Source of the DNA: Rhodobacter capsulatus
GTDB lineage: Bacteria > Pseudomonadota > Alphaproteobacteria > Rhodobacterales > Rhodobacteraceae
Direction of reading: 5' to 3'
Length of the DNA: 50,515 nucleotides
Assembly (NCBI RefSeq): GCF_005144475.1
Contig: NZ_SWJZ01000044.1
Location: 1 to 50,515, forward strand
Position numbers and translations under genes: made by a program. The notes under the pieces are model-generated. The model was not told the DNA's origin and made no database searches. It saw only the letters and a program-made list of their open reading frames with translations. Positions 2,412 through 34,566 of the stretch are shown piece by piece (the stretch's first letter is position 1; each line of letters starts with the position of its first letter).

Positions 2412-2460
2412 GGGGGGCGCTGCCCCCCTGACCCCCCGGGATATTTGAGGCAAGATAAAG
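2412..2460 (+). repeat. 3'-end repeat module, copy 1
   Basis: A perfect hairpin (GGGGGGC, loop GCT, GCCCCCC, 2412-2428) is followed by the core CCCCCCGGGATATTTGAGG and CAAGATAAAGG (2432-2460). It starts 3 nt after the hydrolase stop and runs up to the stop of the convergent peptidase gene. It is one of seven copies in the window, all oriented hairpin then core relative to the gene that has just ended. Confidence 0.85.
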
Positions 2461-2464
2461 GGGA

Positions 2465-3451
2465 TCAGCGCAGGTCTTGCCAGCAGGGTTGCCGGTCGCC
2501 CGGATGGGGCGTGGCGGCGAAGACCGCGCGGGCGATGGCACGGGCAAGGCAGGCGCTGGCGGCATGGCCAAGCTGGAACGGATCGGCGATCGGGTCCGTC
2601 AGCGGCCTGGCGCCCGTGGCCGCGGCAAAGACCAGATCGCCATCAAGCGGCGTGTGGCTGGGCACCAGCGCCCGGGCCATGCCGTCATGCGCCGCGACCG
2701 CCAGCCGATGCGCCTGTGCCTTGCTCAGCGCCGCATCGGTGGCGACGATGGCGATGGTCGTGGCCTCGCCCATGCGTTTCATCGGCACCGGCTCGGCCGC
2801 GGCCGGATAGCGCGGCGCGGCGCCAAGGCCGCCGAATTCGGCGCCCATTTCCCAGGGCGCGGCCCAGAAATGCCGCGTCTCGCCCACGGTGGCCGAGCCG
2901 AGCGCATTCACCGCCACCAGCGCGCCGACGGTGAAGCCGCTCTCCAGCACCGCCGAGGCCGAGCCGAGCCCGCCCTTGAGCTGGCCCGTAAGTGCGCCGA
3001 ACCCCGCCCCCGCGCTGCCGATGGCGAAATCTGCCGCCGCCGCGGCAAGGGCCTTGCGGCCCAGCCCCGCATAGGGGTTTTCCGCCCAGTCCTTGTCGCC
3101 GCCATTCAACAGATCGAAAAGGATCGCCGCGGGCACGATCGGCACCCGCACCGGGCCCACGGCAAAGCCGCGCCCCATCGCCTGCAGCCCCGCCATCACC
3201 CCCGACGCCGCGTCCAGACCAAAGGCCGAGCCGCCCGAGAGCACCAGCGCATCGACGCTTTCCACCAGCTTGTCGGGGGCGAGCAGGTCGGTTTCCCGCG
3301 TCCCCGGGGCGCCGCCCATCACATGCACGGCGGCGGTGAAGGGGCGCTCCGCCGTCAGCACGGTGACGCCCGAACGCAGCGCGGCGTCATGGGCAGTGCC
3401 GACCCGCAGCCCGGCGACATCGGTGATCAGATTGCGCGGTCCGGGTTTCAT
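2465..3451 (-). CDS. P1 (S58/DmpA-NylC) family peptidase
   Basis: An N-terminal-nucleophile hydrolase of 328 residues, related to the aminopeptidase DmpA and the 6-aminohexanoate-oligomer hydrolase NylC. Family hallmarks are GGSAFGLDAA near residue 73, GAGFGALTGQLKGGLG near 148, and TTIAIVATD-(n)-LSKAQAHRLA-(n)-HDG near 231. Family members cleave themselves just before the Thr nucleophile. Here the Thr is kept (Thr231) but the preceding residue is Ala rather than the Asn of NylC. A cytosolic location is inferred because no signal peptide is visible. Substrates in this family range from D-amino-acid peptides to nylon oligomers, so the role here is unknown. It lies convergent to the Afmid-type gene. 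Confidence 0.82.
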   Translation of the reverse strand: MKPGPRNLITDVAGLRVGTAHDAALRSGVTVLTAERPFTAAVHVMGGAPGTRETDLLAPDKLVESVDALVLSGGSAFGLDAASGVMAGLQAMGRGFAVGPVRVPIVPAAILFDLLNGGDKDWAENPYAGLGRKALAAAAADFAIGSAGAGFGALTGQLKGGLGSASAVLESGFTVGALVAVNALGSATVGETRHFWAAPWEMGAEFGGLGAAPRYPAAAEPVPMKRMGEATTIAIVATDAALSKAQAHRLAVAAHDGMARALVPSHTPLDGDLVFAAATGARPLTDPIADPFQLGHAASACLARAIARAVFAATPHPGDRQPCWQDLR

Positions 3452-3547
3452 GCGGGGCCCCCTTGTTCATCCTGGCCCGAGTATCAGCACAGCCCGGCCC
3501 CTGCCGCCAGAGACGATTACCCCCGGGGATGCGTCACAGGTGCCGCG

Positions 3548-4132
3548 TCAAAGCGGCCGCTCCATCGCCACCGTCGTCCGGTAGCCGAAGATCGCCGCCG
3601 TCAGCCAGCGATCCACGCGCCCGGTCACCGCAAAGCCGAGCCGGTCGTAAAGCGCCTTCGCGCGCAGGTTCTCGTGCACCACATCGAGCCGCAGCACGCG
3701 GTAGCCGCGGGCCTGCGCCTCGGCACAAAGCGCCTCGATCAGCGCCGCGCCGAGCCCCCTGCCCCGCATCGGCTCGGTCACGGCAAGACCGTCGACGCAA
3801 AGCGTGCCCTGCGCCAGATCCTGCGCCAGCGCCTGCAGCGCAAGGCCGCGCCAGAACGCGCCGAACCGGCCGTAGACCGCGCGCAGATCGGCGCGGTCGC
3901 CGCCGACAAAGGCGCCGTCGCGGGTGCGAAAGCCGATCACCCCCAGCACATGGCCCCGCGCATCCACCGCCGCGATCATGTGGGCGGGGTCGATCACCCG
4001 CTCGATGAAGGCCACCGCCTTGAGCTCGGGCCCCATCACCCGGCCCAGCTTCGCCCCGAAGGCCCGCCAGTACAGCGCCGCCGCCTCGGCCCGCTGATCC
4101 GCCGTCAACCCCTGATGCAGCCGAACCTTCAT
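3548..4132 (-). CDS. GNAT-family N-acetyltransferase
   Basis: A 194-residue acetyl-CoA-dependent acetyltransferase. The C-terminal half carries the GNAT core: a beta4 strand with CVDGLAV, the acetyl-CoA pyrophosphate loop RGRGLGAAL, and the late motif NLRAKALYDRLGF. The first 60 residues are family-specific. The ATG at 4132 begins MKVRLHQG; longer upstream reading is antisense to azlC and not credible. The acceptor is unknown. It is divergent from azlC and followed, 96 bp later, by the peptidase gene on the same strand. A weak, diverged relative of the 3'-end module can be seen about 65-85 nt after its stop. Confidence 0.8.
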   Translation of the reverse strand: MKVRLHQGLTADQRAEAAALYWRAFGAKLGRVMGPELKAVAFIERVIDPAHMIAAVDARGHVLGVIGFRTRDGAFVGGDRADLRAVYGRFGAFWRGLALQALAQDLAQGTLCVDGLAVTEPMRGRGLGAALIEALCAEAQARGYRVLRLDVVHENLRAKALYDRLGFAVTGRVDRWLTAAIFGYRTTVAMERPL

Positions 4133-4226
4133 GCCCCCGCCTCCCGGTCCGAGAATTGCGCCCGATACAATCGCCCGCTTGGTGCCTTGCGGCGTGACCC
4201 CTAGAACTCGCGCATCCCTTCCCCCC

Positions 4227-4254
4227 AGACAAGCCCCCCAAGACAAGCCCCCCC
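4227..4254. repeat. Tandem 14-bp duplication upstream of azlC
   Basis: AGACAAGCCCCCC occurs twice head to tail (4227-4240 and 4241-4254), ending 13 bp before the azlC ATG. The C-run after each copy could allow slippage. A small local duplication in the azlC leader; no function is known. Confidence 0.6.
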
Positions 4255-4267
4255 GAGAAACACCTCG

Positions 4268-4987
4268 ATGACCGCCCCAAGCCCCCTGTCCTCCGCCTAT
4301 TGGCGCGGCTGCCGCCAAGGTCTGCCCTTCATCCTGGTCATCCTGCCCTTCGGCCTGCTGTTCGGCGTCGCGGGCACCGAAGCCGGGTTGTCGCTGGCCG
4401 AGGTGATGGGCTTTTCGATCCTTGTCATCGCCGGGGCCTCGCAATTCACCGCGGTGCAGCTGATGACCGATCACGCCAGCACGGTGATGGTGATCCTCGC
4501 CTCGCTCGCGGTGAACCTGCGGATGGCGATGTATTCCGCCTCGCTCGCGCCGCATCTGGGGACGGCGCCGACCTGGGCCCGGGCGCTGGTGGCCTATTTC
4601 ATGGTCGATCAGGTCTTTGCGCTGGCGAATGCCGAGTATGAGCGCGCACCGCAACAGAGCCTGGCCGAAAAGCTGGCCTATTACGCCGGGGCCTGCACGC
4701 CGGTCTGTCCGCTCTGGTATGTCGCCACGCTGGCCGGGGCCTGGCTGGGCAAGGCGATCCCGCCCGCCTTCGCGCTGGATTTCGCCGTGCCGGTGACATT
4801 CCTTGCGATGATCGCGCCGATGCTGCGGTCGCTGCCGCATCTGGTCGCCGCGGCGGTCTCGATCGGGATGGCGCTGGCGTTCTCGGTCCTGCCCGCGGGC
4901 ACCGGGCTGATCCTGGCCGCGCTTTGCGCGATGGCGGCGGGGGCGCAGACCGAGCTGTGGCTGATCCGCCGGAGGGCCGCGCAATGA
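4268..4987 (+). CDS. azlC: AzlC-family branched-chain amino acid exporter, large subunit
   Basis: Inner-membrane protein of 239 residues that pairs with the small AzlD protein to export branched-chain amino acids or analogues (known for AzlCD and YgaZH). The family hallmark FGLLFGVAGTEAGLS is in the first helix, and GASQFTAVQLM and NLRMAMYSASLAPHL follow. Five to seven hydrophobic segments span the rest. The partner azlD follows with an ATGA overlap, so the two are translationally coupled. The upstream leader contains a tandem duplication. A divergent GNAT gene shares the intergenic region. Confidence 0.85.
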   Translation: MTAPSPLSSAYWRGCRQGLPFILVILPFGLLFGVAGTEAGLSLAEVMGFSILVIAGASQFTAVQLMTDHASTVMVILASLAVNLRMAMYSASLAPHLGTAPTWARALVAYFMVDQVFALANAEYERAPQQSLAEKLAYYAGACTPVCPLWYVATLAGAWLGKAIPPAFALDFAVPVTFLAMIAPMLRSLPHLVAAAVSIGMALAFSVLPAGTGLILAALCAMAAGAQTELWLIRRRAAQ

Positions 4988-5325
4988 CCGTTGCAGAACT
5001 TTACGGCAGCCCGACGATCTGGCTGATCATCCTGGCGCTGGGGCTTGGCACCTTCGTGCTGCGCTATTCCTTTCTGGGCTGGATCGGCAGCAGGCCGCTG
5101 CCGGAATGGGCGTTGCGGCATCTGCGCTATACCGCCGTCGCGGTGCTGCCCGGCCTTGTCGCGCCGCTGGTGCTGTGGCCCGCGGCAACCGGCGGGCAGC
5201 CCGATCCGGCGCGGCTGATCGCGGCCGGGGCGACGCTGGCCGTGGGGCTGGCCAGCCGCAACACGCTGGCCGCGATCCTCGGCGGCCTGACGTCGCTTTA
5301 TCTGGCGCTGTGGCTGCTGGGCTGA
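4984..5325 (+). CDS. azlD: AzlD-family small exporter subunit
   Basis: A 113-residue inner-membrane protein with three to four hydrophobic segments. The AzlD hallmarks are TFVLRYSFL near residue 24 and GLASRNTLAAILGG near 87. It is the obligatory small partner of AzlC in the known AzlCD/YgaZH exporters. The start codon overlaps the azlC stop by four bases (ATGA). It ends only 6 bp before the stop of the convergent lipoprotein gene, so transcripts probably overlap. Confidence 0.82.
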   Translation: MTVAELYGSPTIWLIILALGLGTFVLRYSFLGWIGSRPLPEWALRHLRYTAVAVLPGLVAPLVLWPAATGGQPDPARLIAAGATLAVGLASRNTLAAILGGLTSLYLALWLLG

Positions 5326-5331
5326 GCCCGG

Positions 5332-5961
5332 TCACTCGGACTTGCCGAACCCCGTGCCGTGCTGCGCCGGCGCCTGCTGGATCATCAGCACGCCGGAATT
5401 GTCGTCGGGATCATTGTCGAAATGATCCTCGGTCACCACGCCCGGCAGCTGCCCGAAGGCCTTCGAGAGCTTCAAGGGCGAGCTGGTCGCCGGGATGCTT
5501 TCAAAGCCCGGGATCGCGCGCAGCACCGAGGAAGTGTCATTGGCGCACATCATCTTGGCCACCGCGCCGTTCGACTGCACCCGCGCCAGAAGCGCCGCGG
5601 CCTGCTGCGGGGTCACGGGCAGGCGCTGTTCGCGCACATACCAGGATTCCCGGGCGTGATAATCGATGTAGAACTTGTACATCCGCTCGGTGATGCCGAA
5701 ATCGACATCGTTCCGTTCCGGCACCGAGGGGTGATACCAGGTCCCGGCCGGATCGAAGATCACCCGCTCCTGCGCGTCGATCATCAGCGCCGAATGACCG
5801 CCCGCCCCGGTGTTGGTGGAAATCACCGTGAACAGCGTCACCGAGGGCGGATTGCCGGTCGAAAACCGCGCGGCATTCACCGCCTCGTCCGGGGCCCATT
5901 TCGGTTCGGCACAGGCGGCCAGCGCAAGCGGCAGGACCAGACAGGAAAGAAGGCGGCGCAT
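5332..5961 (-). CDS. Predicted lipoprotein, possible permuted papain-like (NlpC/DUF4105-like) fold
   Basis: A 209-residue exported lipoprotein. The signal peptide ends in the lipobox LAAC with Cys17. The mature part has a strand with GGHSALMID (His56), then VIFDPAGTWYHP, and later a Cys at position 139 in MMCANDTSSVL. His first and Cys second is the order seen in circularly permuted NlpC/P60-like proteins (LRAT, YiiX, DUF4105 type). This fold assignment is my inference from motif order alone. A ribosome site GAGGGG precedes the ATG. It lies downstream of the metallo-hydrolase gene at 6090 on the same strand but across a 128-bp gap. Function unknown. Confidence 0.7.
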   Translation of the reverse strand: MRRLLSCLVLPLALAACAEPKWAPDEAVNAARFSTGNPPSVTLFTVISTNTGAGGHSALMIDAQERVIFDPAGTWYHPSVPERNDVDFGITERMYKFYIDYHARESWYVREQRLPVTPQQAAALLARVQSNGAVAKMMCANDTSSVLRAIPGFESIPATSSPLKLSKAFGQLPGVVTEDHFDNDPDDNSGVLMIQQAPAQHGTGFGKSE

Positions 5962-6089
5962 CCGGGGACCCCTCGGCGGCAGGAAGTGAATGTCGAAAGG
6001 GGGTTAAGCACGCCCCGCGGGCAGGGGCAACCGGCCGCGCGGACCGCGGGCGCGTTTTCCCGAAAAGTGTCTATTCGGCGCCACGGGCC

Positions 6090-7121
6090 TCAGGCGGACC
6101 AGAGCCAGACGCCGTCGCGGGCCTGCCGGGTGATCTCGCCGCGCAGGAACAGGTGGTTGAGATGCGCCACCGCCTCGACCAGCGCCATGCCGTAGTCCGC
6201 CTCGCCCACCGGGCGCTTGAAGAGCACGGGGAAACAGTCGGTGGCGCTGCGCGGGGCTTCGGCCAGAACCGCGCGCAAGCGGGAAAGCGCGCCCTCGTGG
6301 TTCTCGATCATCTGGTGCAGGCGCAGCGGCAGACCAAGGAAGGGCAGCTTGTGGCCGGGCAGGATCAGCTGATCTTCGCGCGCGAGCGGTTGAAACGCCC
6401 GGCAGGCGGCCAGCCAGTCGGCGACCGGATCGGCGAGCGGCTCGGTCGCATAGCTGCCCAGATTGGCGGAAATCCCCGGCAAAAGCTGATCGCCCCCCAG
6501 GATCAGCCCGTCATCCTCGCTCCACAGGGTCGCGTGATCGGGCGCATGGCCCTGGCCGATCCGCACCCGCCAGCGCCGCCCGGCGGAACGGATCAGATCG
6601 CCCTCGACCATGTTGCGAAAGCCAAGCGGCAGCGGATGCACGCAATCGGCAAAGTTGAAGGGCCGTTCCTGCGACCGCCGCGCCAGCAGATCCGGGTCCA
6701 TCCCCGCGGCTTTCCAGAAGGCGCGCGTTTCGGGCACCGGCAGGGGCTGTTCGTCCAGCATCAGCATGCGGGCGAAGAGCCAGCTTGTCCGGGTTGTCCA
6801 CAGTTCCGCGCCGCGGGCCTGCAGCCAGCCCGCCAGCCCGATGTGATCGGGGTGGTAATGGGTGACGATGACGCGCGTGACCGGCTTGCCCGACAGCGGC
6901 CCATCGAGCGCCTGTTGCAAGGCCGCACGGCAGGCGCGGCTGTCGATGCCGGGATCGACCAGCGTCCAGCCGTCGCCATCATCCAGCGCATAGGCATTGA
7001 CGTGATCAAGCGCCATCGGCAGCGGCAGGCGCAGCCAAAGCACGCCCTCGGCGACCGCGAGGGTCTCGCCGAAGGCGGGGGCGGTGTCAAAGGGGAAGCT
7101 CAGACCGGATCGTTGTTTCAT
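6090..7121 (-). CDS. MBL-fold metallo-hydrolase (LACTB2/glyoxalase-II-like)
   Basis: A 343-residue cytosolic dinuclear-metal hydrolase. The metal motif THYHPDHIG lies near residue 90. Later ligands are in GHAPDHATLW near 199, the Asp of LGGDQL near 215, and LPGHKLP near 266. The C-terminal 80 residues resemble the winged-helix domain of LACTB2-like enzymes, ending in HLNHLFLRGEITR. Its ATG overlaps the stop of the upstream acyl-CoA dehydrogenase (ATGA), so the two are co-translated. That suggests a thioester- or ester-hydrolysing role next to acyl-CoA oxidation, which is an inference. Confidence 0.82.
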   Translation of the reverse strand: MKQRSGLSFPFDTAPAFGETLAVAEGVLWLRLPLPMALDHVNAYALDDGDGWTLVDPGIDSRACRAALQQALDGPLSGKPVTRVIVTHYHPDHIGLAGWLQARGAELWTTRTSWLFARMLMLDEQPLPVPETRAFWKAAGMDPDLLARRSQERPFNFADCVHPLPLGFRNMVEGDLIRSAGRRWRVRIGQGHAPDHATLWSEDDGLILGGDQLLPGISANLGSYATEPLADPVADWLAACRAFQPLAREDQLILPGHKLPFLGLPLRLHQMIENHEGALSRLRAVLAEAPRSATDCFPVLFKRPVGEADYGMALVEAVAHLNHLFLRGEITRQARDGVWLWSA

Positions 7122-8800
7122 GCCCCAAGGTCTTCGGGGGAAAGCGCGAAAAGGTCAACCGCCCCCGCCCGTGCCGCCGCCAGAGCCGCCTCGGCCTGCG
7201 GCAGAAGACGGCGGATGTAGACGGCTGCCAGTTTCTCATGCGCCCCGCCTTCAAGTGCCGCGCGCAGGTGGTAATGCGCCCCCAGCACCCGGGCAAAGGC
7301 GCGCAGATAGGGCACGGCGCCGGCGAAACGGTCCTGCGTGCCCTGGGCGATCATCCATTCGGTCTGCTCGCGCAGGGTCTCGGCCGATTGCCAGACCGCT
7401 TCGGCCAGATCGGGCAAGGCCTCGCGCGCGGCCCTTGCGGCATCCTCGATTTCCTGCAGCAGGCGGAAGGCGGCGCGGCCGTCATCGGCCATCTTGCGGC
7501 CGACAAGATCCATCGCCTGAATGCCGTTCGTGCCCTCGTAGATCGCCGTCACCCGCACGTCGCGGCAATATTGCGCCGCGCCGGTCTGTTCGATGAAGCC
7601 CATGCCGCCATGCACCTGCACGCCCTGTTCGGCGACCCAGATCCCGGTATCGGTGCCGTAGGCCTTGGCGATCGGCGTCAGCAGCGCGGCGCGGGCCAGC
7701 CAGTGCTCCTCGCCCGTCGCGCGTCCCAGATCCAGCGCGACGGCGCAAGCCAGCGCGATCGAGCGCGCGGCAAAGATCTCGGCCCGCATCTCGGCCAGCA
7801 TGCGCCGGACATCGGCATGCTGGATGATCTGCGAGAATTGCACCCGGTCCTGCGCATAAGCCAGCGCCTGCTGGAACGCGGCTTCCGCCACGCCGATCCC
7901 CTGCACGCCGACGGCCAGACGGGCGTTGTTCATCATCGTGAACATCGCCGCCATGCCCTTGCCGGGTTCGCCCACCAGCCAGCCTTTCGCGCCCTCGAAG
8001 CTCATCACGCAGGTGGGCGAGCCATGCAGGCCCATCTTGTGTTCGAGCGACACGACGCCAAGGCTGTTCGCCACCCCGGGCTTGCCCGCCGCATCGGGGA
8101 TATATTTCGGCACCATGAAGAGGCTGATCCCCTTCGTGCCCGGCGCCGCATCGGGCAGCCGCGCCAGCACCAGGTGACAGATGTTTTCCGTCACATCGGA
8201 ATCGCCCCAGGAAATGAAGATCTTCTGCCCGGTGATCGCATGGGTGCCATCGCCCAGCGGCTCGGCCCGGCTGCGCAGCGCGCCGACGTCGGACCCCGCC
8301 TGCGGCTCGGTCAGGTTCATCGTCCCCGACCATTCGCCCGAAATCAGCTTCGGAATGTAAAGCGCCTTGAGCGCGTCGCTGGCGTGATGTTCGAGCGCCT
8401 CGATCTGGCCCTGCGTCAGAAGCGGGTTCAGCTGCAGCGCCAGATTGGCCCCCGACATCATGTCGTTCACCGCGACGCAGATCGTCTGCGGCAGGCCCAT
8501 ACCGCCAAACTCCTGCGGCGCGGCAACGGCGACCCAGCCGCCCTCGGCGATCTGCTGGTAAGCTTCCCTGAACCCCGGCGAGGTCCGCACGACGCCGTTT
8601 TCCAGCCGCGCCGGATGCAGGTCGCCCGCGCGAAGAAGCGGCGCCATCACCTCGTCGCAGAGCTTTCCAGCCTCGGTCAGCACAGCTTCGACGGTCTCGG
8701 GCGTGGCTTCGGCGAAGCGCTCGGTCGCCGCCACCGGGGCCAAAGGCACCACCTTGTCCAGGATGAAGCGGATATCGGCAACGGGCGAGCGATAGGCCAT
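7118..8800 (-). CDS. Acyl-CoA dehydrogenase, long DmdC/FadE-type
   Basis: An FAD enzyme of 560 residues that desaturates an acyl-CoA thioester. It is longer than the usual 380-400 residues and matches the long class with an extra C-terminal domain, which includes 3-methylmercaptopropionyl-CoA dehydrogenases (DmdC). Visible motifs are LTEPQAGSDVGALRS and ITGQKIFISWGDSD in the flavin-binding middle domain, QGVQVHGGMGFIEQ, and the catalytic Glu in AIYEGTNGIQAMDL. The ATG at 8800 follows GGAGACCGTC. It is divergent from sua5 and coupled to the metallo-hydrolase. DmdC function is plausible for this order, but close long-chain paralogues cannot be excluded by eye. Confidence 0.85.
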   Translation of the reverse strand: MAYRSPVADIRFILDKVVPLAPVAATERFAEATPETVEAVLTEAGKLCDEVMAPLLRAGDLHPARLENGVVRTSPGFREAYQQIAEGGWVAVAAPQEFGGMGLPQTICVAVNDMMSGANLALQLNPLLTQGQIEALEHHASDALKALYIPKLISGEWSGTMNLTEPQAGSDVGALRSRAEPLGDGTHAITGQKIFISWGDSDVTENICHLVLARLPDAAPGTKGISLFMVPKYIPDAAGKPGVANSLGVVSLEHKMGLHGSPTCVMSFEGAKGWLVGEPGKGMAAMFTMMNNARLAVGVQGIGVAEAAFQQALAYAQDRVQFSQIIQHADVRRMLAEMRAEIFAARSIALACAVALDLGRATGEEHWLARAALLTPIAKAYGTDTGIWVAEQGVQVHGGMGFIEQTGAAQYCRDVRVTAIYEGTNGIQAMDLVGRKMADDGRAAFRLLQEIEDAARAAREALPDLAEAVWQSAETLREQTEWMIAQGTQDRFAGAVPYLRAFARVLGAHYHLRAALEGGAHEKLAAVYIRRLLPQAEAALAAARAGAVDLFALSPEDLGA

Positions 8801-8932
8801 GACGGTCTCCTGTGGTGCGCTTGGCAAACGGGGCCGGGGCGCGTATGCGTGGGGCAAATTCGGGTCGGTTTCGGGGAAAGGTTACCGCAAGGGAAGCCCC
8901 CGTCCACCGCAACGCAGCGTCACGAGGGTGGG

Positions 8933-9892
8933 ATGCAGGAAATGACCGAACGTCTTGGGACGGATGCCGCGGGGCTGGCCCGCGCGGCCGCGCTTTTGCG
9001 GGCAGGTCAGCTGGTCGCCTTCCCGACCGAGACGGTCTATGGCCTGGGCGGCGATGCGCGTCAGGGCGCGGCCGTCGCGGCGATCTATGCCGCCAAGGGC
9101 CGCCCGCAGTTCAACCCCTTGATCGTGCATGTGGCCGACATGGCGATGGCGGAACAGGTCGCGATCTTCTCGGATCAGGCCCGCGATCTGGCCGCAAGGT
9201 TCTGGCCCGGCCCGCTGACGCTGGTTCTGCCCGCGCGCCCCGAGGCCGGGATCTCCGATCTGGTCACCGCGGGGCTGGCCACGGTGGCGGTGCGGATGCC
9301 CGCGCATCCGGTCGCCCGTGCGCTGCTCGCCGCCTTTGGCGGGCCGCTCGCCGCGCCTTCGGCCAACCCGTCGGGCAAGGTCAGCCCAACCGAGGCGGAT
9401 CACGTGCTCGAGGGGCTCTCGGGCCGGATCGCGGCCGTGGTCGATGGCGGCGCCTGCGCGGTGGGGGTCGAATCGACGATCCTCGGGCTGGAACCGCCGG
9501 TGCTGCTGCGCCCCGGCGGGGTCGATGTCGAAACGCTGGAAAAGGCTCTGGGCCAGCCGCTCGCCTTTGGCGGCGATGCGGTGAAACCGAACGCGCCGGG
9601 ACAGCTGGTCTCGCATTACGCCCCCGGCGCGGCGGTCCGGCTGGAAGCGACCGAGAAACGCCCGGGGGAAATCTATCTTGGCTTCGGCCCCGGCCCCGCG
9701 GCGGATCTGACGCTTTCGGCGCGCGGCGATGCGGTCGAGGCGGCGACGAAGCTTTTCGCGATGCTGCGGGTGGCCGACAAGCTTGCCACCGCGCGCGGCG
9801 CCGCCACCATCGCGATCGCGCCGATCCCGGAAACCGGCCTTGGCCGCGCGATCAACGACCGGCTGCGCCGCGCCGCCGCGCCGCGGGGATAG
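8933..9892 (+). CDS. L-threonylcarbamoyladenylate synthase, Sua5 type
   Basis: Makes threonylcarbamoyl-AMP from threonine, bicarbonate and ATP, the first step of the t6A37 tRNA modification. The YrdC domain shows FPTETVYGLGGDA, KGRPQFNPLIVHV, and SANPSGKVSPT. About 319 residues, with a C-terminal Sua5 domain after the linker motif PGQLVSHYAP, so it is the two-domain Sua5 rather than single-domain TsaC. I prefer the ATG at 8933 because GAGGG sits 4 nt upstream; the ATG at 8942 is an alternative. A repeat module follows the stop. The gene is divergent from the acyl-CoA dehydrogenase. Confidence 0.9.
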   Translation: MQEMTERLGTDAAGLARAAALLRAGQLVAFPTETVYGLGGDARQGAAVAAIYAAKGRPQFNPLIVHVADMAMAEQVAIFSDQARDLAARFWPGPLTLVLPARPEAGISDLVTAGLATVAVRMPAHPVARALLAAFGGPLAAPSANPSGKVSPTEADHVLEGLSGRIAAVVDGGACAVGVESTILGLEPPVLLRPGGVDVETLEKALGQPLAFGGDAVKPNAPGQLVSHYAPGAAVRLEATEKRPGEIYLGFGPGPAADLTLSARGDAVEAATKLFAMLRVADKLATARGAATIAIAPIPETGLGRAINDRLRRAAAPRG

Positions 9893-9963
9893 GGGGCGCT
9901 GCCCCCTCTTTTGGCTGCGCCAAAATTCACCCCCGGGATATTTCGGCCAAGGTGAAACAAGAC
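9892..9963 (+). repeat. 3'-end repeat module, copy 2 (after sua5)
   Basis: It begins at the sua5 stop. Hairpin 1 is GGGGGC GCT GCCCCC (9892-9906 region) and hairpin 2 is TTTTGGC TGC GCCAAAA (9909-9925). The core CCCCCGGGATATTT starts at 9930, and GGCCAAGGTGAAA replaces the usual GCAAGATAAA. Its core is inverted with respect to copy 3, so together they form a long stem in the convergent gap. Confidence 0.85.
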
Positions 9964-9969
9964 CCGGAT

Positions 9970-10031
9970 CGGCTTTCACCTTGGCGCAAATATCCCGGGG
10001 GGAGTCCGCAGGACGGGGGGCAGCGCCCCCC
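9970..10031 (-). repeat. 3'-end repeat module, copy 3 (after UPF0301 gene)
   Basis: On the minus strand: the hairpin GGGGGGC GCT GCCCCCC (10015-10031), then CCCCCCGGGATATTTG and GCCAAGGTGAAA (9974-10002). It is the mirror copy of the module following sua5; arms 9946-9957/9974-9985 and 9930-9943/9988-10001 pair. Confidence 0.85.
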
Positions 10032-10040
10032 TGCCCGGTC

Positions 10041-11530: not shown

Positions 11531-11537
11531 CCGGCCC

Positions 11538-22744: not shown

Positions 22745-22756
22745 CTGCGGCTCTCC

Positions 22757-25996: not shown

Positions 25997-26008
25997 AAGT
26001 TTCGCCTC

Positions 26009-26734: not shown

Positions 26735-27231
26735 TCCGACCCGAGCTGCGCGCGCATCTGATCCGGCAGCGCGAAGCTTATGTCGCAGGTCTGACGCTCG
26801 CCGCGAGCCTCTGGGTCGCGACGCGCGGCGGCTGGTTTCTGGCGGCGGTGGGACTGCCCCTTGCCGCGCTTGCCGCGGGGTGGCTCGTTCTCGCGCTGCG
26901 CCGGGCCCGCTTTGCCCGGCCGGTCTCCGATCCGGGGGTGGTCGATCTGGACGAAGGCCGGATCGGCTATTGGGGCACCGGCGGGGCGGTTCTGGGCGGC
27001 ACCATGGCGCTGGAGGATCTGACCGAAATCCGGCTGCTGATCCTGAAAGACAGCCAGTTCTGGCGGCTCAAGAGCCGCGACGGGCAGGCGCTTCTGGTGC
27101 CGGTGGCCGCTGTCGGCTCGGAAAAGCTCTTTGACGCCTTCGCCGGTCTGCCCGGCATCGACATGGGCGCACTGGCGGCCGCGCTGGATCGGCGCATCAC
27201 CGCACAAAGCCTGTGGCGCCGTCCCGGTTGA
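26731..27231 (+). CDS. Small membrane protein of unknown function
   Basis: A 166-residue protein with two hydrophobic segments near residues 18-35 and 37-56, then a soluble, strand-rich domain (VVDLDEGRIGYWG, TEIRLLIL, WRLKSRDGQALLVPV). This design recalls PH-like membrane proteins, as in the two at 13405 and 13887, though sequence similarity is not obvious by eye. GTG start at 26731 overlapping the rsmE stop. It lies between rsmE and gshA on the same strand, and 63 bp separate it from gshA. Function unknown. Confidence 0.7.
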   Translation: MIRPELRAHLIRQREAYVAGLTLAASLWVATRGGWFLAAVGLPLAALAAGWLVLALRRARFARPVSDPGVVDLDEGRIGYWGTGGAVLGGTMALEDLTEIRLLILKDSQFWRLKSRDGQALLVPVAAVGSEKLFDAFAGLPGIDMGALAAALDRRITAQSLWRRPG

Positions 27232-27294
27232 GGCGGCTTGACTTGGCGGCGCGGAAGAACCACCTGTTGTGTCCCAACGGAAAGAGAGGGTCCG

Positions 27295-28665: not shown

Positions 28666-28684
28666 GCCGCCCCTGTGGGCCTGC

Positions 28685-28736
28685 TTTTATCTTGCCATAA
28701 ATATCCTGCGGGGGTGCGGGGGTGCAAAACCCCCGC
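28685..28736 (-). repeat. 3'-end repeat module, copy 4 (after FAD oxidoreductase)
   Basis: Minus strand: the hairpin GCGGGGGT, loop TTTGC, ACCCCCGC (28716-28736) is followed by CCCCCGCAGGATATTTATGG and CAAGATAAAA (28685-28714). It starts 23 nt after the oxidoreductase stop. It has one C/A difference in the GGGATATTT box but the same order and orientation as the other copies. Confidence 0.82.
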
Positions 28737-28759
28737 CTCCGCCTGTCGGCTCCAAAGCG

Positions 28760-29806
28760 TCAGAGGTTGTCCTCGACCCGGAACCCCGCCGGGATCGCAT
28801 CGACCCCGTCGAGCACCAGATCGGCCATCACCTGCGCGACTTTCGGCGCCATGCCGAAGCCGATCTTGAAGCCGCCATTGACAATGAAATGCCCCTCGCG
28901 CCCCGGCCAGGCGCCGAGCATCGGCGAGCGCGAAACCGAGCGCGGCCGCACATTCGCCCAGCGCTCGATCACCTCGGCCCCCGCAAGCGCGGGCACCAGG
29001 GCCCGGGCCCGCTCCAGCACCGCCTCCAGCTGCGCATCGGTCGCGGTCGGGTCGGTGTAGCTGCGCTCGGCGGTCGAGCCGACGCCCACGGTGCCATTCG
29101 CATGCGGCACCACCAGCACGCCATCGGCAAAGATCTGCGGCACCGGGCCGGGATCGAGCTTCAGGATCGCCGACTGCCCCTTGACGCCATTGCCGACCTC
29201 CTTGCCGAAGGCCTCGGACAATTCAACAAGCCCCGCAAGCCCGGTCGCATGCAGCACGATGCCTTCATCGGCCGCGTCGCCAAAGACGATCTCGCCGCCC
29301 AGGGCCTCGATCGCCGCCGCCAAGGCCGCCGCCGCGCCCCGCGGCGAGGCCCGGCCGGACAGCGTGTCATGAATGACCAGCCCGGTCGGCGTCACCGGCG
29401 CGAAGGCGCCGAACTCGTTCACCGGGGCAATGCGCCAAAGATACTCCGCCCCCCAGTTCGCCGCCGCATCCTTGGCCCGCAGCTCGGCCAAGGTCACCGC
29501 CGCCGGATCGGCCAAGGGCTGCAGCCGCCCGATCCGCGCAAAGCCCGCATCCTTGCCGCCGACCTCTTTCACCCCCGCCCAGAAGGCCTCCGACATCACC
29601 AGACTGTCGAACTGGAACTGCTTCTTCGGGTTCCACTGATCGGGCACATGCGGTGAAAGCATGCCGACCGTGCCGCCCGACGACCCCGCGCCGATTCGAT
29701 CCCGCTCGATCAGCCGCACCTTTGCCCCGCGACGCGCCAGCTCATAGGCACAGGCAAGGCCGAAAACCCCGCCACCGCGCACCGTCACCCGATCTGCTCT
29801 TGCCAT
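28760..29806 (-). CDS. FAD-dependent amine oxidase (DAO family, ThiO/MnmC-oxidase-like)
   Basis: An FAD enzyme of 348 residues. The dinucleotide-binding motif is GGGVFGLACAYELARRGA near residue 12 with Glu33-Arg (LIERDRIG). The DAO-family late motifs are NVRPRSVSRSPMLG near 286 and NGGFKIGFGMAPKVAQ near 315. It may oxidise the N-C bond of a glycine-like substrate, as ThiO and the MnmC C-terminal domain do. It is divergent from mnmD with 52 bp between starts, so it may supply the oxidase half of a split MnmC; a stand-alone D-amino-acid dehydrogenase is equally possible. The ATG at 29806 follows AAAGGGG. Confidence 0.78.
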   Translation of the reverse strand: MARADRVTVRGGGVFGLACAYELARRGAKVRLIERDRIGAGSSGGTVGMLSPHVPDQWNPKKQFQFDSLVMSEAFWAGVKEVGGKDAGFARIGRLQPLADPAAVTLAELRAKDAAANWGAEYLWRIAPVNEFGAFAPVTPTGLVIHDTLSGRASPRGAAAALAAAIEALGGEIVFGDAADEGIVLHATGLAGLVELSEAFGKEVGNGVKGQSAILKLDPGPVPQIFADGVLVVPHANGTVGVGSTAERSYTDPTATDAQLEAVLERARALVPALAGAEVIERWANVRPRSVSRSPMLGAWPGREGHFIVNGGFKIGFGMAPKVAQVMADLVLDGVDAIPAGFRVEDNL

Positions 29807-29858
29807 CGCCAGCCCCTTTCGCCACTCTCGCGTCACATCCCCACAGGCACTATCCCCG

Positions 29859-30524
29859 ATGACCTCCCCAGACCAGAGCCCGGCCGCGCTTGCGTGGCGC
29901 GACGGATCGACGCCCGTTTCGACCCGTTTCGACGATCCCTATTTCAGCCTGGCCGGAGGGTTGGCCGAAACCCGGCATGTCTTCCTGGCGGGCAACGACC
30001 TGCCCGCGCGGCTGCGCCCCGGCTTTCACGTCGCCGAACTGGGCTTCGGCACCGGCCTGAACCTTTTGGCCCTCGCGCTGTCGACCGAGCAGCCGATCCG
30101 CTTCACCAGCTTCGAGGCCTTCCCGATGTCGGCCGAAGAAATGGCCCGCGCCCATACCGCCTTTCCGGACATCGAACCCGTTGCCGAACCGCTGATTGCT
30201 GCGATGCAGCATGGAGAGACGCAGTTTTCGCTGCGCAGCATTTCCGTCACGCTGATCCTTGGCGATGTCCGCGAAACCCTGCCGAACTGGGCCGATCACG
30301 CCGACGCCTGGTTCCTGGACGGCTTTTCACCTGCGAAAAACCCCGAGATGTGGGGCGAGGATCTGATGGCCGAGGTCGGGCGTCACACCGCGCCCGGCGG
30401 CACCTTCGCCACCTACACCGCCGCGGGCTTCGTGCGCCGCGGTCTTGCGGCGGCGGGCTTCACCGTCACCCGCGCCCCGGGCCATGCCGGCAAACGCCAC
30501 ATGAGCCGCGGGGCGAGGCCATGA
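29859..30524 (+). CDS. mnmD: tRNA 5-aminomethyl-2-thiouridine methyltransferase
   Basis: SAM-dependent methyltransferase of 221 residues corresponding to the MnmC N-terminal domain (DUF752). It makes mnm5(s2)U34 in tRNA. The N-terminus has RFDDPYFS, the SAM motif is ELGFGTGLNLL near 60, the acidic loop FEAFPM follows, and DAWFLDGFSPAKNPEMWG near 148 is the family signature. It ends GKRHMSRG. The oxidase half of MnmC is not fused; a DAO-family FAD gene lies divergently next to it. Its stop overlaps the start of the DMT transporter. Confidence 0.88.
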   Translation: MTSPDQSPAALAWRDGSTPVSTRFDDPYFSLAGGLAETRHVFLAGNDLPARLRPGFHVAELGFGTGLNLLALALSTEQPIRFTSFEAFPMSAEEMARAHTAFPDIEPVAEPLIAAMQHGETQFSLRSISVTLILGDVRETLPNWADHADAWFLDGFSPAKNPEMWGEDLMAEVGRHTAPGGTFATYTAAGFVRRGLAAAGFTVTRAPGHAGKRHMSRGARP

Positions 30525-31399
30525 GAGCCACCCAGAACATCGGCCGCGGCATCTGGCTGATGGTGGCGGTCACGCTCATCTTCGCCATTCAGGACGGGAT
30601 CTCGCGCCATCTCTCGGGCGCCTACAACGTCTATATGGTGGTGACGATCCGCTACTGGTTCTTCGCGCTCTTCACCCTGACCCTCGCCGCGCGCTCCTCG
30701 GGCGGGCTGCGTGCGGCGCTCGCGACGAAACAACCGCTCGTGCAGACGATCCGCGCCCTGCTTCTGGTCCTTGAGATCGTGATCGTCATTCAGGCCTTCG
30801 TCCACCTGGGCCTGATCGAGACCCATGCGGTCTTTGCCGCCTATCCGCTGCTTGTCGCCGCCCTGTCGGGTCCGGTGCTGGGCGAGACCGTCGGCTGGCG
30901 GCGCTGGACCGCGATCGGCATCGGCTTTGCGGGGATCCTGATCATCCTGCAACCGGGCTATGGCGTCTTCCGCCCCGAGGCGATGATCCCGCTGTTCGGC
31001 GCCCTGCTGTTTGCGCTTTATTCGCTGCTGACCCGCTTCGCGGCGAAAAAGGACCCGGCCTCGGTCTCTTTCTACTGGACGGGGCTCGTCGGCGCGCTGG
31101 TGATGACGCCCTTGGGCCTGATCTTCTGGCAACCGATGATCGCCAGTGACTGGCTCTGGATGGCGGCGCTCTGCCTCACCGCCGTCACCGCGCATTTCCT
31201 GCTCATTCAGGCCTATGAAATCGCCGAGGCCTCGGCGATCCAGCCCTTCGCCTATCTGCAACTGGTCTGGGTCTCGGGCATCGGCATCTGGGCCTTTGGC
31301 GACATCTTGCGCCCCAACGTCGCCCTTGGCGCCGCCGTGGTGGTCTGCGCGGGCCTCTTCACGCTCTGGCGCGCGCAGGCCAAGGCGGAAAACCCCTGA
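30521..31399 (+). CDS. DMT-superfamily (EamA) transporter
   Basis: Inner-membrane transporter of 292 residues with about ten hydrophobic helices in two EamA repeats. The repeat motifs are seen as FAIQDGISRHLSG near 20 with RYWFFALFTL, GETVGWRRWTAIGIGFAGIL near 122, and GALLFALYSLLTRF near 160. Such proteins export or import metabolites; the substrate cannot be read from sequence. ATGA overlap with mnmD. The convergent gap after its stop holds a repeat module that belongs to slt by orientation. Confidence 0.85.
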   Translation: MRATQNIGRGIWLMVAVTLIFAIQDGISRHLSGAYNVYMVVTIRYWFFALFTLTLAARSSGGLRAALATKQPLVQTIRALLLVLEIVIVIQAFVHLGLIETHAVFAAYPLLVAALSGPVLGETVGWRRWTAIGIGFAGILIILQPGYGVFRPEAMIPLFGALLFALYSLLTRFAAKKDPASVSFYWTGLVGALVMTPLGLIFWQPMIASDWLWMAALCLTAVTAHFLLIQAYEIAEASAIQPFAYLQLVWVSGIGIWAFGDILRPNVALGAAVVVCAGLFTLWRAQAKAENP

Positions 31400-31403
31400 T
31401 GCC

Positions 31404-31455
31404 CTTTATCTTGCCGGAAATATCCCACGGGGGTGCGGGGGTGTGAAACCCCCGC
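31404..31455 (-). repeat. 3'-end repeat module, copy 5 (after slt)
   Basis: Minus strand: the hairpin GCGGGGGT, loop TTCAC, ACCCCCGC (31435-31455) is followed by CCCCCGTGGGATATTTCCGG and CAAGATAAAG (31404-31433). It begins 6 nt after the slt stop and runs to the stop of the convergent transporter gene. Confidence 0.85.
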
Positions 31456-31461
31456 CCTGCC

Positions 31462-33408
31462 TCACCAGGCCCCGCGCAATTCGTCGGTAAATCGCACCGC
31501 CCCCGCATCGGGCCGACCCAGCCGCGCGCGATAGACGGGCAGGCTCTCCGCCACCCGCATCACATAGGTCCGGGTCTCGGTGAACGGGATCATCTCCACC
31601 CAGTCGACGACATCGACCGACGGCGCGCGCGGATCGCCGCGCTCGGCGATCCAGCGCCGCGGCCGTCCGGGACCGGCATTGTAGCCCGCCGCCACCAGCA
31701 CCGGCGAGGTGCCGAATTCCTCCTGCAGCTTCGCCAGATATTCCGATCCCAGCCGCACGTTGTAAGACGGATCCGAGGTCAGCCGCCGCAATTCGTAAGG
31801 CTCGCCCAGCTTCTTCGCCATCATCTTCGCGGTCTCGGGCATCAGCTGCATCATCCCCCGCGCGCCGACCGGGCTGACGACGGCGGGATCAAACTCGCTT
31901 TCCCGCCGCGCGATCGACAGCGCCAGTTCCTCGGGCACGACCAGCCCCGCGGGGTTCAGATCGGGCAGCGGATAATAGGCCCGCGTCAACACCACCCCCT
32001 CGTTCGCCGCCCGTTTCGCCAGAAGCAGCATCAGATGCGCGTCGTGCCATTCCTCGGCCAACCGGGCCAGCGGGGCGATCTGCTCGGGCGGCAGGCTTTC
32101 TTCCAGATGCAACAGGAAGCGTTCCGCCAGATCCCGCGCGCCCGCCGCCTGCAACAGCTGCGCCGCCTGAAACACCGGATCCTGCACGAAGGGCGCCGCC
32201 CGCCAGTCGGGCAGCGCGGGCGGGGCGGCAAAGGCGGGGTCCAGCGGCGCACCGATCCGCTCGGCGCAGAGCAGCCCGTAATAGGCGGTCTGCCACTGCG
32301 CGCCTTCGACCCAGGCCTGATCGGCCTCGGCGACCCGGCCGATCGCCTCCAGCGCCCGGCCGCGCCAATAGGCGGCGCGGGATTTCGAAATCGGCCCGCT
32401 GACCGCGGCTTCCAGCGCCTCGAAATGCGCAAGCGCGGCGGGCGCATCGCCCAGTTTCAACGCCGCAAAGCCCGCCAGCCATTCCAGATCGGCCCAATCC
32501 GGATCGTCCGAGGGCAACCGATGCCGCGCCGCGATCTTGTAGGCCAGCCGCGCATCACCCTGCCGCAGGAAGAACCGCGCCAGCTGCCCGCGCAGATCCG
32601 ACCAAAGCTTCGGATCGCCAAGGCTTTCCGCGGTCTGCGAAAACGCCAGCACGATCTCGGCCGCGCCCGCTTCCAGATCGTTGCGCCAACGCCAGACCGC
32701 CCGGTCGCGGGCCAGCCCGCTTGATCCCGCCATCCGCTCCGGCACCGCCTGCAAAAGCTTGTCCACCCCCTCGGCCCGCGCCTGCAGGGCGATCCGCGCC
32801 TCGGCCACCGCCCGCGTGCCCGGGGTGACCAACGGCAGCATCGCGCGGGCCCGCGCAAGGCGGCCGCCATCCAGCGCCGCCTGCATCCGCCCGCCGTGGA
32901 AGGGCGCGACCAGATCGGCGTGACGGGCCAGAAACGCCGCCTGTTCTTCGGGCGTCAGGTCCAGACGGCGCCAGGCCGCCTCGGCCACGGCGGCGGCCTT
33001 GTCGGGCTGGCCCATCGCCTGCCGCGCCGCGATCAGCGCCAAGGCGCCGGTGCCGGTCTGCGGCGCGGCCGCCCCGAAATAGGCCACGGTCTCGACCGGA
33101 TTGGCGCCCGCCAGCTGCGCCTCGCCCTGCTTGCGCAGAAGCTCCATCCCCGGCCAATCGGCCCGCCGGGCGGCGAAATCGGCGTAATCGGCGAAACTGC
33201 CCTTGCCCGCGCGCAGCCGTTGCCATTCGATCAGATCGAAGGCGAGCGGTCCGGCCAGCCGGGCCTCGGCCGCGGCCTGATCCCAGTCGGTTTTCGCCGC
33301 CGCCGCCAGCGCGCGCGTCAGGGAAACGGGGTCGTCGGCCCGCCCGGCAAGGGGCAGAAACACCGCGGAAGCCGCCAGCAGAACGGCAAGGGAAAGAGGT
33401 TTGATCAT
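31462..33408 (-). CDS. slt: Soluble lytic murein transglycosylase
   Basis: Periplasmic enzyme of 648 residues that cleaves peptidoglycan glycan strands to 1,6-anhydro ends. A signal peptide occupies residues 1-25. The helical doughnut region follows to about residue 480. The SLT domain then shows the catalytic Glu in [10 protein letters not shown], the motif [13 protein letters not shown], a [12 protein letters not shown] helix and [13 protein letters not shown]. The ATG at 33408 starts MIKPLSLA, a proper signal peptide; an in-frame ATG 12 nt upstream is also possible. It is divergent from dapA. Confidence 0.92.
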
Positions 33409-33468
33409 GGGCCTGTGCATGCGTTTTCAACAGGCTGCGCGCAAGCCGTGATCGTTGCAATTCACAAG

Positions 33469-33497
33469 TTGGCAAGACCGAAAGCCTCGCCTATGGT
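33469..33497 (+). promoter_or_regulatory. Sigma-70-type promoter of dapA
   Basis: TTGGCA (33469-33474), a 17-bp spacer, and TATGGT (33492-33497) lie 50 bp before the dapA ATG. The -35 has 5/6 and the -10 has 4/6 matches to the housekeeping consensus with ideal spacing. A ribosome site CAGGAG follows at about 33536. Confidence 0.55.
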
Positions 33498-33546
33498 CCG
33501 CGCGACTTTCACTCAGGCGAATCCGCCTCAAGCTCAGGAGCGTGTC

Positions 33547-34419
33547 ATGTTCAAAGGGTCCTTCCCCGCACTCGTCACGCCGTTTTCAAACGGCGCCGTC
33601 GATTGGGACACGCTCAAGAAGCTGGTGAACTGGCACATCGACCAGGGCAGCCACGGTCTTGTGCCGGTCGGCACCACCGGCGAAAGCCCGACGCTGAGCC
33701 ATGAAGAACATAACGAAGTCGTGCGCGTCGTGGTGGAAACCGCGGCGAAACGCGTGCCGGTGATCGCGGGCGCGGGCTCCAATGCCACCGCCGAAGGGAT
33801 CGAGCTGATCCGCCACGCCGAGGCGAACGGCGCCGATGCGGCGCTCGTCGTGACGCCCTATTACAACAAGCCGACGCAGCGGGGCATGGTGGCGCATTTC
33901 ACCGCGATGCATGACGCCTGCACCCTGCCGATCATCATCTACAACATTCCCGGCCGCTCGGTCGTCGACATGATGCCCGAGACGATGGGCCAGCTGGCGC
34001 AGCTGCCGCGGATCGTCGGCGTGAAGGATGCGACGGGCGATCTGAGCCGGGTGGCGAAGCAGCGCATGACCTGCGGCGCCGATTTCCTGCAGCTTTCGGG
34101 CGAAGATGCGACGGCGGTCGGCTTCAACGCGATGGGCGGCGTCGGCTGCATCTCGGTGACGGCGAATGTCGCGCCGAAGCTTTGCGCCGAGATGCAGGAA
34201 GCCACCCTGCGCGGCGATTATGCGAAGGCGCTCGAATATCAGGATCTTCTGCTGCCGCTGCATATCGCGATCTTCCTCGAGCCGGGCGTGGCCGGGGCGA
34301 AATATGCGATGTCGAAGCTTGGGCTCTGCAGCCCCGAGGTGCGGCTGCCGCTGACCGAACTGACCGACGCGACCAAGGCCGCGCTTGACGCCGCAATGAA
34401 ACACGCCGGGCTGATCTGA
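33547..34419 (+). CDS. dapA: 4-hydroxy-tetrahydrodipicolinate synthase
   Basis: Condenses pyruvate with aspartate semialdehyde, the first committed step to lysine and diaminopimelate. The 290-residue protein is a full-length Dap[15 protein letters not shown] near 43 is the family signature, [11 protein letters not shown] near 131 holds the catalytic Tyr, [11 protein letters not shown] near 158 has the Schiff-base Lys, and [21 protein letters not shown] near 184 is the second signature. A good promoter and ribosome site precede it. Divergent slt also serves the wall, as diaminopimelate does. Confidence 0.95.
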
Positions 34420-34444
34420 GGTCGGTCCTTTTGGCGACCTGTGC

Positions 34445-34513
34445 GGGGGGCTTTGCCCCCCGTCTTGCTTTCAGCAAGCCTCCCCCCGGGATATTTGAAG
34501 CAAGATAAAAGGG
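34445..34513 (+). repeat. 3'-end repeat module, copy 6 (after dapA)
   Basis: After a small stem AGGTCG/CGACCT at the dapA stop come the hairpin GGGGGGC TTT GCCCCCC (34445-34461), the hairpin CTTGCT TTC AGCAAG (34464-34478), and the core CCCCCCGGGATATTTGAAG and CAAGATAAAAGGG (34482-34513). The core is inverted against copy 7 so the two can pair over about 27 bp. Confidence 0.87.
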
Positions 34514-34514
34514 A

Positions 34515-34566
34515 TGCTCTTTATCTTGCTCCAAATATCCCGGGGGTCTGGGGGCAGAGCCCCCAG
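34515..34566 (-). repeat. 3'-end repeat module, copy 7 (after glutamine-synthetase-like gene)
   Basis: Minus strand: the hairpin CTGGGGGC, loop TCT, GCCCCCAG (34548-34566) is followed by CCCCCGGGATATTTGGAG and CAAGATAAAGAG (34519-34546). It starts 4 nt after the stop of the 34571 gene and mirrors copy 6. Confidence 0.87.

What the first reader, a model, noticed from the sequence alone, without database searches (positions are those of the whole stretch)
2412..34566. A 3'-end module repeated seven times with one orientation rule
Seven copies (2412-2460, 9892-9963, 9970-10031, 28685-28736, 31404-31455, 34445-34513, 34515-34566) share one design: stop codon, then a G/C hairpin, then C(5-6)GGGATATTT, two or three bases, and (a)GCAAGATAAA or CCAAGGTGAAA. 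In 7 of 7 the hairpin-to-core order follows the transcription of the gene that has just ended, and all lie in convergent gaps of 55-151 bp. Such gaps occur five times with the module; the convergent gaps of 6-7 bp have none, and the opgC-LysR gap holds other structures. In the two paired cases the cores are inverted and can form a 27-bp-class stem between the two transcripts. This looks like a dedicated 3'-end element for termination, mRNA stability or transcript interference, or a REP-like mobile family that tolerates only 3' ends.
Basis: seen in the sequence. Interest (0 to 1): 0.75.

Follow-up and report, generated by a model that had tools for sequence, protein, structure and literature searches.

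The report
Self-rewriting repeat at gene ends
A short DNA repeat sits at the ends of many genes in a purple photosynthetic bacterium and its relatives, often as two mirror-image copies that can fold together; it stays in place over evolution while some of its letters change unusually fast, and it probably marks where messages from facing genes stop.

Summary
All seven copies are real. They belong to a genome-wide family in a Rhodobacter near R. capsulatus: 244 cores GGGATATTTNNNNCAAGRTRAA (up to 3 mismatches) and 104 of a third type (up to 2); at least 60 are in both sets, so at most 288 in all. Reversed-pattern controls: 0.

The repeat is tied to gene 3' ends: in 471.6 kb, gaps of 40 bp or more hold it in 21 of 47 convergent, 15 of 142 codirectional and 1 of 64 divergent cases. 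The 7-of-7 orientation rule is forced by convergent geometry; solo copies in codirectional gaps are 11 reversed, 5 not. The G/C hairpin belongs to types 1 and 2 (82 of 92), not type 3 (4 of 28).

Paired arms change together (54 two-sided changes, 7 expected; 66 one-sided). The central NNN changes 1.8 to 4.1 times faster than synonymous sites; fixed letters change in about 2%.

Best reading: a REP-like family working as a two-way 3'-end hairpin whose core is also read by an unknown factor. It meets neither the GTAG nor the CGTC REP definition. Ten literature searches showed no description.

The parts
2410..2430 (+). copy 1 G/C hairpin (CAG6CGCTGC6TG), C-tract 2432-2437
2438..2459 (+). copy 1 core, type 1, solo, NNN=GAG
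   Evidence: present in three relatives
9892..9907 (+). copy 2 G/C hairpin; extra hairpin TTTTGGCTGCGCCAAAA at 9909-9925; C-tract 9930-9934
9935..9956 (+). copy 2 core, type 2, left arm of a pair, NNN=CGG
9975..9996 (-). copy 3 core, type 2, right arm of a pair, NNN=GCG
9997..10031 (-). copy 3 G-tract, small hairpin 10004-10014, G/C hairpin 10015-10031
28686..28707 (-). copy 4 core, type 1 (AGGATATTTATGGCAAGATAAA), solo; type 3 (G198, G209) or type 2 (G197) at the same place in relatives
28710..28736 (-). copy 4 G-tract 28710-28714 and G/C hairpin 28716-28736
31405..31426 (-). copy 5 core, type 1, solo; type 3 in G197 beside the same hairpin, type 3 without hairpin in G209
31429..31455 (-). 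copy 5 G-tract 31429-31433 and G/C hairpin 31435-31455
34445..34461 (+). copy 6 G/C hairpin; extra hairpin CTTGCTTTCAGCAAG 34464-34478; C-tract 34482-34487
34488..34509 (+). copy 6 core, type 1, left arm of a pair, NNN=GAA
34520..34541 (-). copy 7 core, type 1, right arm of a pair, NNN=GGA
34542..34565 (-). copy 7 G-tract 34542-34546 and G/C hairpin 34549-34565
34482..34546 (.). whole palindrome C6-core-10 nt-core-G5 between dapA-like (33547-34419 +) and glutamine-synthetase-like (34571-35950 -) genes

Best explanation
A dispersed, palindrome-forming repeat family of Rhodobacteraceae that marks gene 3' ends. The unit is a non-palindromic 22-bp core, [left half: GGGATATTT, GAGGTATTT or GGCGTATTT]-NNN-[right half: GCAAGATRAA, CCAAGGTGAA or CCAAGAARAA]. 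In types 1 and 2 a C-tract and a G/C hairpin usually lie on its 5' side. About half of the sampled sites are two cores facing each other. Because the pair is a palindrome, both converging transcripts would carry the same long hairpin (two helices around an NNN/NNN internal loop), which I propose ends or caps both transcripts: a two-way 3' boundary that blocks read-through antisense RNA and 3' exonuclease. The core itself is also read sequence-specifically, since solo cores, in either orientation and sometimes with no hairpin, keep the same fixed letters. Shown by sequence: location, pairing geometry, paired change, conservation of the fixed letters, dialects, in-place turnover. Inferred: transcription through the element, termination or protection, and a trans-acting reader.
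For: Location: convergent gaps of at least 40 bp 21/47, codirectional 15/142, divergent 1/64; 1 of 64 cores in a gene call; Fisher p 1e-6 convergent against codirectional, 9e-9 convergent against divergent. Geometry: of 86 sampled sites 44 are head-to-head pairs, 42 solo, none tail-to-tail or tandem; one tail-to-tail and one tandem-plus-pair site appear in the larger blocks. Long stems, z -10.3 and -8.0. Arms share the right-half type in 34 of the 40 pairs listed (one search counted 34 of 36 after dropping four pairs whose partner has another left half; about 47% mixed expected for types 1 and 2). Ten paired sites in up to four genomes: 54 two-sided changes among 1083 core cells, 7 expected if arms were independent, 52 of 54 keeping complementarity; NNN only 39 against 28.6 expected. 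Fixed letters change in 1.6-2.3% of cells, other intergenic DNA in 8-13%, fourfold sites in 12-22%. Positions persist in 32/34, 28/30 and 20/24 orthologous gaps.
Against: No transcript or 3'-end data. No U-tract follows the type 1/2 stem; terminator-like sites in the two window regions scanned are near the shuffled rate. Codirectional solo copies are 11 reversed, 5 same. One-sided changes in paired arms are as common as two-sided ones (66 against 54 of 1083 cells), and cells are pairwise comparisons, so one event counts several times. One mixed type 1/type 3 pair is kept in all four species, so perfect pairing is not needed. NNN matching between arms is slightly above chance in type 1 (22 of 36, p 0.04), at chance in type 2 and below chance in type 3. 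Quasi-palindrome correction could also create two-sided changes, although it would have to skip NNN. In codirectional reversed solos the element lies upstream of the next gene and may act there instead.
Confidence: 0.5

Rival explanations
1. Selfish or passive REP-like repeat: copies spread by some unknown transposase or by ectopic repair and survive only where they hurt least, in the 3' intergenic DNA of convergent and codirectional genes. Homogeneity within a genome comes from ectopic copying, not function.
For: Avoidance of divergent (promoter) gaps, 1 of 64, is expected from tolerance alone. The location pattern matches published REPs (PMC3733652, passages and sections read). Types replace each other in place. 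NNN differ at 34-50% against 12-22% fourfold divergence, which suggests rewriting. One pair is present only in the window genome among four species (C64:47357).
Against: No Y1 transposase family member in this genome while 5 of 14 control genomes ring. Positions are stable, and no sampled site present in a relative is missing here. In own-against-G198 cores whose NNN is unchanged, fixed letters still change in only 5 of 228 cells (my count from the 19 such cores), so the fixed letters are kept even where the core seems not to have been rewritten; cores were only recognised with at most 3 mismatches, which biases this downward.
Confidence: 0.25
2. DNA-level site: each core binds a sequence-specific protein (roadblock, nucleoid or topology factor) and inverted pairs arrest polymerase from both sides or absorb the supercoiling between convergent genes. 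RNA folding is incidental.
For: Solo cores without hairpin are kept in four species (C64:61217, C64:9163). Orientation relative to transcription is free. Fixed bipartite letters around a free 3-bp spacer look like a protein site. Genomes differ in dialect.
Against: No reader identified. The spacer between paired cores varies from 7 to 46 bp, against a rigid dimer site. Two-sided changes that keep complementarity are not required by two independent protein sites, though a shared dialect would also give them.
Confidence: 0.2
3. DNA uptake signal of the Neisseria/Haemophilus kind, with dialects and inverted pairs reused as terminators.
For: Dialects, inverted pairs and 3'-end placement resemble DUS/USS (PMC3630211 passages; PMC1852404 abstract and passages).
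Against: Only 1 of 64 cores in gene calls, whereas intragenic DUS positions are called common. At most 288 copies rather than the usual 1000 or more. Specific uptake in Rhodobacter is not known to me (recall).
Confidence: 0.03

Closest known systems
CGTC- and GTAG-tagged REPs (Di Nocera et al. 2013, PMC3733652; abstract, sections 6 and 14 and passages read)
   Same: Short high-copy repeats; CGTC elements mostly head-to-head dimers; homo- and heterodimers; lie between convergent and unidirectional ORFs close to 3' ends; [quoted passage not shown]
   Different: The REP unit is itself a palindrome with a CGTC or GTAG tag; here the 22-bp core is not a palindrome, no such tag flanks the hairpin (0 of 86), no RAYT-type gene was found, and the hairpin is mostly missing from type 3. 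The words Rhodobacter and Rhodobacterales do not occur in that main text; its figures and supplements were not seen.
DNA uptake sequences DUS/USS (PMC3630211, PMC1852404; passages)
   Same: Lineage dialects; inverted pairs forming stem-loops at gene ends.
   Different: Far fewer copies, almost none in genes, bipartite with a hypervariable NNN.
Bidirectional intrinsic terminators (recalled)
   Same: Palindrome between convergent genes; some type 3 spacers hold a hairpin followed by TTTCTTCTTGG or TTTTTCTTGG (C64:20851).
   Different: The type 1/2 stem is followed by G-runs, not T-runs; solo cores have no stem of their own.
E. coli BIMEs (recalled; start of the abstract of PMC2817692 in the listing)
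   Same: Composite of REP units in alternating orientation.
   Different: Different sequence and unit; no RAYT gene here.

Membership tests
GTAG REP / RAYT system | A RAYT (Y1_Tnp) gene in the genome | tested here: not met
   PF01797: 0 matches in the window's genome (170 contigs, 99.98% complete); controls ring in 5 of 14 genomes
GTAG REP / RAYT system | Unpaired GTAG at one end of a 20-40 bp palindrome | tested here: not met
   0 of 86 G/C hairpins have GTAG before or CTAC after the stem
CGTC REP | CGTC/TGTC/CCTC tag at one end of the stem | tested here: not met
   0 of 86 hairpins, either strand
CGTC REP | 8-9 bp stem starting with A-T pairs, 4-5 nt loop, CCA-like tail | tested here: not met
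   The stem is a G-run/C-run with loops CGCTG, CTCTG and similar; definition read
REP-like in the wide sense | High-copy, intergenic, near 3' ends, often in inverted dimers | tested here: met
DNA uptake sequence | Common inside coding sequences as well as between genes | tested here: not met
   1 of 64 cores in a gene call
DNA uptake sequence | Promotes DNA uptake | not testable with these tools
   needs a transformation assay
Intrinsic terminator | GC-rich hairpin followed at once by a T-run | tested here: inconclusive
   In the window's two pairs the stem is followed by G-runs; two of the window's G/C hairpins have weak T-rich tails (9891, 34443), and site numbers in the two scanned regions are near the shuffled ones; type 3 was not scanned
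Described RNA families (Rfam 15) | Match above gathering score | tested here: not met
   Only ffh sRNA in the window; at 34400-34600 only sub-threshold matches, mostly microRNA hairpin models

The most novel reading that the evidence does not exclude
A dedicated, lineage-specific gene-end system: an unknown sequence-specific factor reads the bipartite core TATTT-N4-CAAG, and core dialects across the genome co-evolve with that factor. Many fixed sites are rewritten in place within the time in which synonymous sites change by 12-15%, while pairs largely keep arm-to-arm complementarity. Transcript ends of facing genes would thus be defined by a rapidly evolving site-factor pair.
Probability: 0.25. 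Interest if true: 0.85.

Novelty: new variant of a known kind. Interest (0 to 1): 0.6.

Why it matters
How transcription ends, and how facing genes are kept apart, is poorly known in GC-rich alpha-proteobacteria (my general knowledge). This family gives some 260 to 290 cores in a genome whose close relatives include R. capsulatus, with natural variants (pair or solo, with or without hairpin, three core types, orthologous type switches) that act as ready-made mutants. The NNN triplet changes 1.8 to 4.1 times faster than fourfold synonymous sites in positionally fixed elements, so the family is also a good subject for asking how repeats are rewritten in place.

Tried and rejected
Orientation rule: rejected as forced by convergent geometry. 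Convergent-only placement: rejected. Uniform gene conversion as the only source of dialects: not enough, because in several orthologous cores letters on both sides of NNN changed while NNN stayed (C111:20978 and C111:77139); yet wholesale rewriting is also likely, since in G197 NNN identity is not clearly above that of unrelated copies (62 of 123, shuffle mean 55.5, largest 72). Change in NNN and change in dialect letters are at most weakly linked (Fisher p 0.04 in G197, 1.0 in G198 and G209). RAYT origin: rejected here. Rfam: nothing. Phage origin: no match in 50,697 phage records (one pair as query), 5 contigs in IMG/VR (exact pattern). Plasmids: weak partial matches in 6 records of Rhodobacterales. 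RNase E site in AUAUUU: an idea only; PMC6238624 (passages) reports AU-rich cleavage sites and names no such repeat in the passages shown. My first gene finder chose wrong frames and was replaced. The 20 background stretches were chosen away from listed copies, so they serve only for gap composition. Dropped rows: one search left out four of 40 pairs (three with a type 3 partner, one with a GAGG partner).
Full report
WHAT IS THERE. The seven reported copies are real and unexpected by chance. The neighbours are ordinary genes: alpha/beta hydrolase and S58 peptidase; Sua5 and AlgH-like; GCS2 and FAD oxidoreductase; EamA and lytic transglycosylase; dapA-like and glutamine synthetase (Pfam).

ORGANISM. 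The closest named relatives of the glutamine synthetase are R. capsulatus DSM 1710 (98%) and R. viridis JA737 (97%). Contig lengths equate G197 with DSM 1710 (263,245) and G209 with R. viridis (344,167). G198, with a 3,738,958-base contig, is R. capsulatus SB1003 by recall.

COPY NUMBER AND TYPES. In the own genome GGGATATTTNNNNCAAGRTRAA with up to 3 mismatches occurs 114 + 130 times, and the reversed pattern 0 times. A third type, RGCGTATTTNNNCCAAGAARAA with up to 2 mismatches, occurs 57 + 47 times, control 0. The two sets overlap: by my count 60 of the 71 perfect type 3 cores listed begin with GGCG and therefore also fit the first pattern at 3 mismatches, so the union is at most 288. In the 471.6 kb of own blocks the numbers are 52, 29, 17 in both, 64 in all. 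A wider pattern without mismatches gives 261. Three cores lie within 12 bases of contig ends (C85, C93, C110), so the assembly may break at them and counts may be lower bounds.

ANATOMY. Of 100 perfect type 1/2 cores (the listed part of the 244), 60 have a perfect inverted partner within 100 bp, 10 one with 1-3 mismatches, and 30 only matches with 5-11; the same-strand control starts at 5 mismatches, and the upstream opposite-strand control has one match at 3 and the rest from 7 up. Partner letters are nearly invariant except NNN and the type letters. A G/C hairpin precedes 82 of 92 type 1/2 cores but 4 of 28 type 3 cores, and occurs in 7 of 153 gaps without a core.

PLACEMENT. In 86 sampled sites, 44 are head-to-head pairs and 42 are solo. 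Of 75 sites with both neighbours called, 34 are convergent, 35 codirectional, 5 divergent and 1 inside a gene call; 11 lie at contig or stretch edges. In 471.6 kb of five whole contigs (the window plus four contigs chosen because they hold copies, so occupancy may be somewhat high), 64 cores with at most 1 mismatch lie in 21 of 47 convergent, 15 of 142 codirectional and 1 of 64 divergent gaps of 40 bp or more, and in 1 of 189 shorter gaps; 1 core is inside a gene call.

ORIENTATION. In codirectional gaps, where it can, solo cores are 11 reversed and 5 same (binomial p 0.21). In reversed solos the core usually lies 1-28 bases after the stop codon (9 of 11) with the hairpin before the next start. 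A phage-like cluster boundary behind the terminase gene shows the same freedom: L249 has hairpin then core along transcription, before a portal gene; L247 has the reverse, before a gene that I did not scan.

EVOLUTION. Orthologous gaps in three relatives keep the element: 32 of 34 (G198), 28 of 30 (G197), 20 of 24 (G209); none of the 39 sampled gaps has it in a relative and not here. Losses can be clean: G024 and G205 lack sequence that lies between C- or G-tracts in G115 and G206. In the gap 9893-10040 the left hairpins are identical and the spacer nearly so in four species, while both arms differ in type together, and in G209 the left half is GAGGTATTT on both sides. Over ten paired sites, 54 of 1083 core cells show two-sided change against 7 expected, 52 of them keeping complementarity; 66 cells show one-sided change. 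Cells are comparisons between genomes, not independent events.

RATES. Own against G198/G197/G209: fixed letters 2.0/1.6/2.3% changed, type letters 13.9/29.7/22.3%, NNN 34/50/40%, hairpin region 5.8/6.8/6.5%, other intergenic 8.4/8.7/12.6%; fourfold synonymous sites 15.5/12.2/22.5%. So the fixed letters look to be under purifying selection while NNN turns over faster than synonymous sites. In G197, the closest by synonymous sites, NNN is near saturation, so most cores there seem to have been rewritten in place. In G198 NNN similarity is well above that of unrelated copies (99 of 153 against a shuffle mean of 69, largest 85), so many of those cores have not been replaced, yet type letters shifted in parallel (position 20: A to G in 11 of 17 type 1 cores, G to A in 11 of 21 type 3 cores).

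DISTRIBUTION. Counts with RSRTATTTNNNSCAAGRWRAA in 18 genus members run from 0 (G199, G203) to 269 (G210), controls 0. Across the order, 91 of 196 genomes have TATTTNNNNCAAGNNNAAA, many with only 1-2 matches, where single control hits also occur; genomes with many matches show their own dialects, such as GATATTTNNNGCAAGAAAAAA in G146 or TATTTNNNGCAAGAGGAAA in G195 (listings are capped).

MECHANISM. Folding gives one long stem for a pair, with the outer hairpins able to join it. Because the pair is a palindrome, either transcript would carry the same structure. I infer a two-way transcript-end element. That the fixed letters are also kept in solo cores without a G/C hairpin (C64:61217, C64:9163) argues that the core is read by sequence. 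I cannot tell an RNA reader from a DNA reader.

LITERATURE. The answered searches were made; their listings showed no description of this repeat, and the library lacks most subscription journals. Seen: PMC3733652 (abstract, sections 6 and 14, passages), PMC1852404, PMC3630211 and PMC6238624 (passages only).

Noticed in passing
L249:1711-1813, L247:8201-8338, L245 (match at 1739-1761): In phage-like (by recall GTA-like) clusters from IMG/VR the core and hairpin follow the terminase gene, in opposite orientations in L249 and L247, next to a terminator-like hairpin; in L249 the next gene is the portal gene. L245 has the match at the same place but its proteins were not scanned.
   Followed up: partly
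window:45307-45358 (+): Rfam ffh sRNA (RF01793) just before the gene at 45394.
   Followed up: no
G000 contigs C85, C93, C110 (right ends): Cores lie within 12 bases of contig ends, so the palindromes may break the assembly.
   Followed up: no
own contig C80 near 90702 and C111 near 104431: The one tail-to-tail type 3 arrangement seen in the blocks, and tandem type 3 cores (++-); the first also in G198, the second also in G198 and G209.
   Followed up: partly
own contig C64:47357-47525: A complete type 2 pair present only in the window genome; three relatives keep a single hairpin there: a recent gain or repeated loss.
   Followed up: partly
own contig C64:42777-43174: The gap with a solo core also holds a stretch that looks, from memory, like a glycine riboswitch.
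   Followed up: no
type 3 pairs of the own genome: NNN of the two arms match less often than by chance (27 of 87, shuffle mean 37; 29 pairs read by hand from the capped list), as if an open internal loop were preferred.
   Followed up: partly
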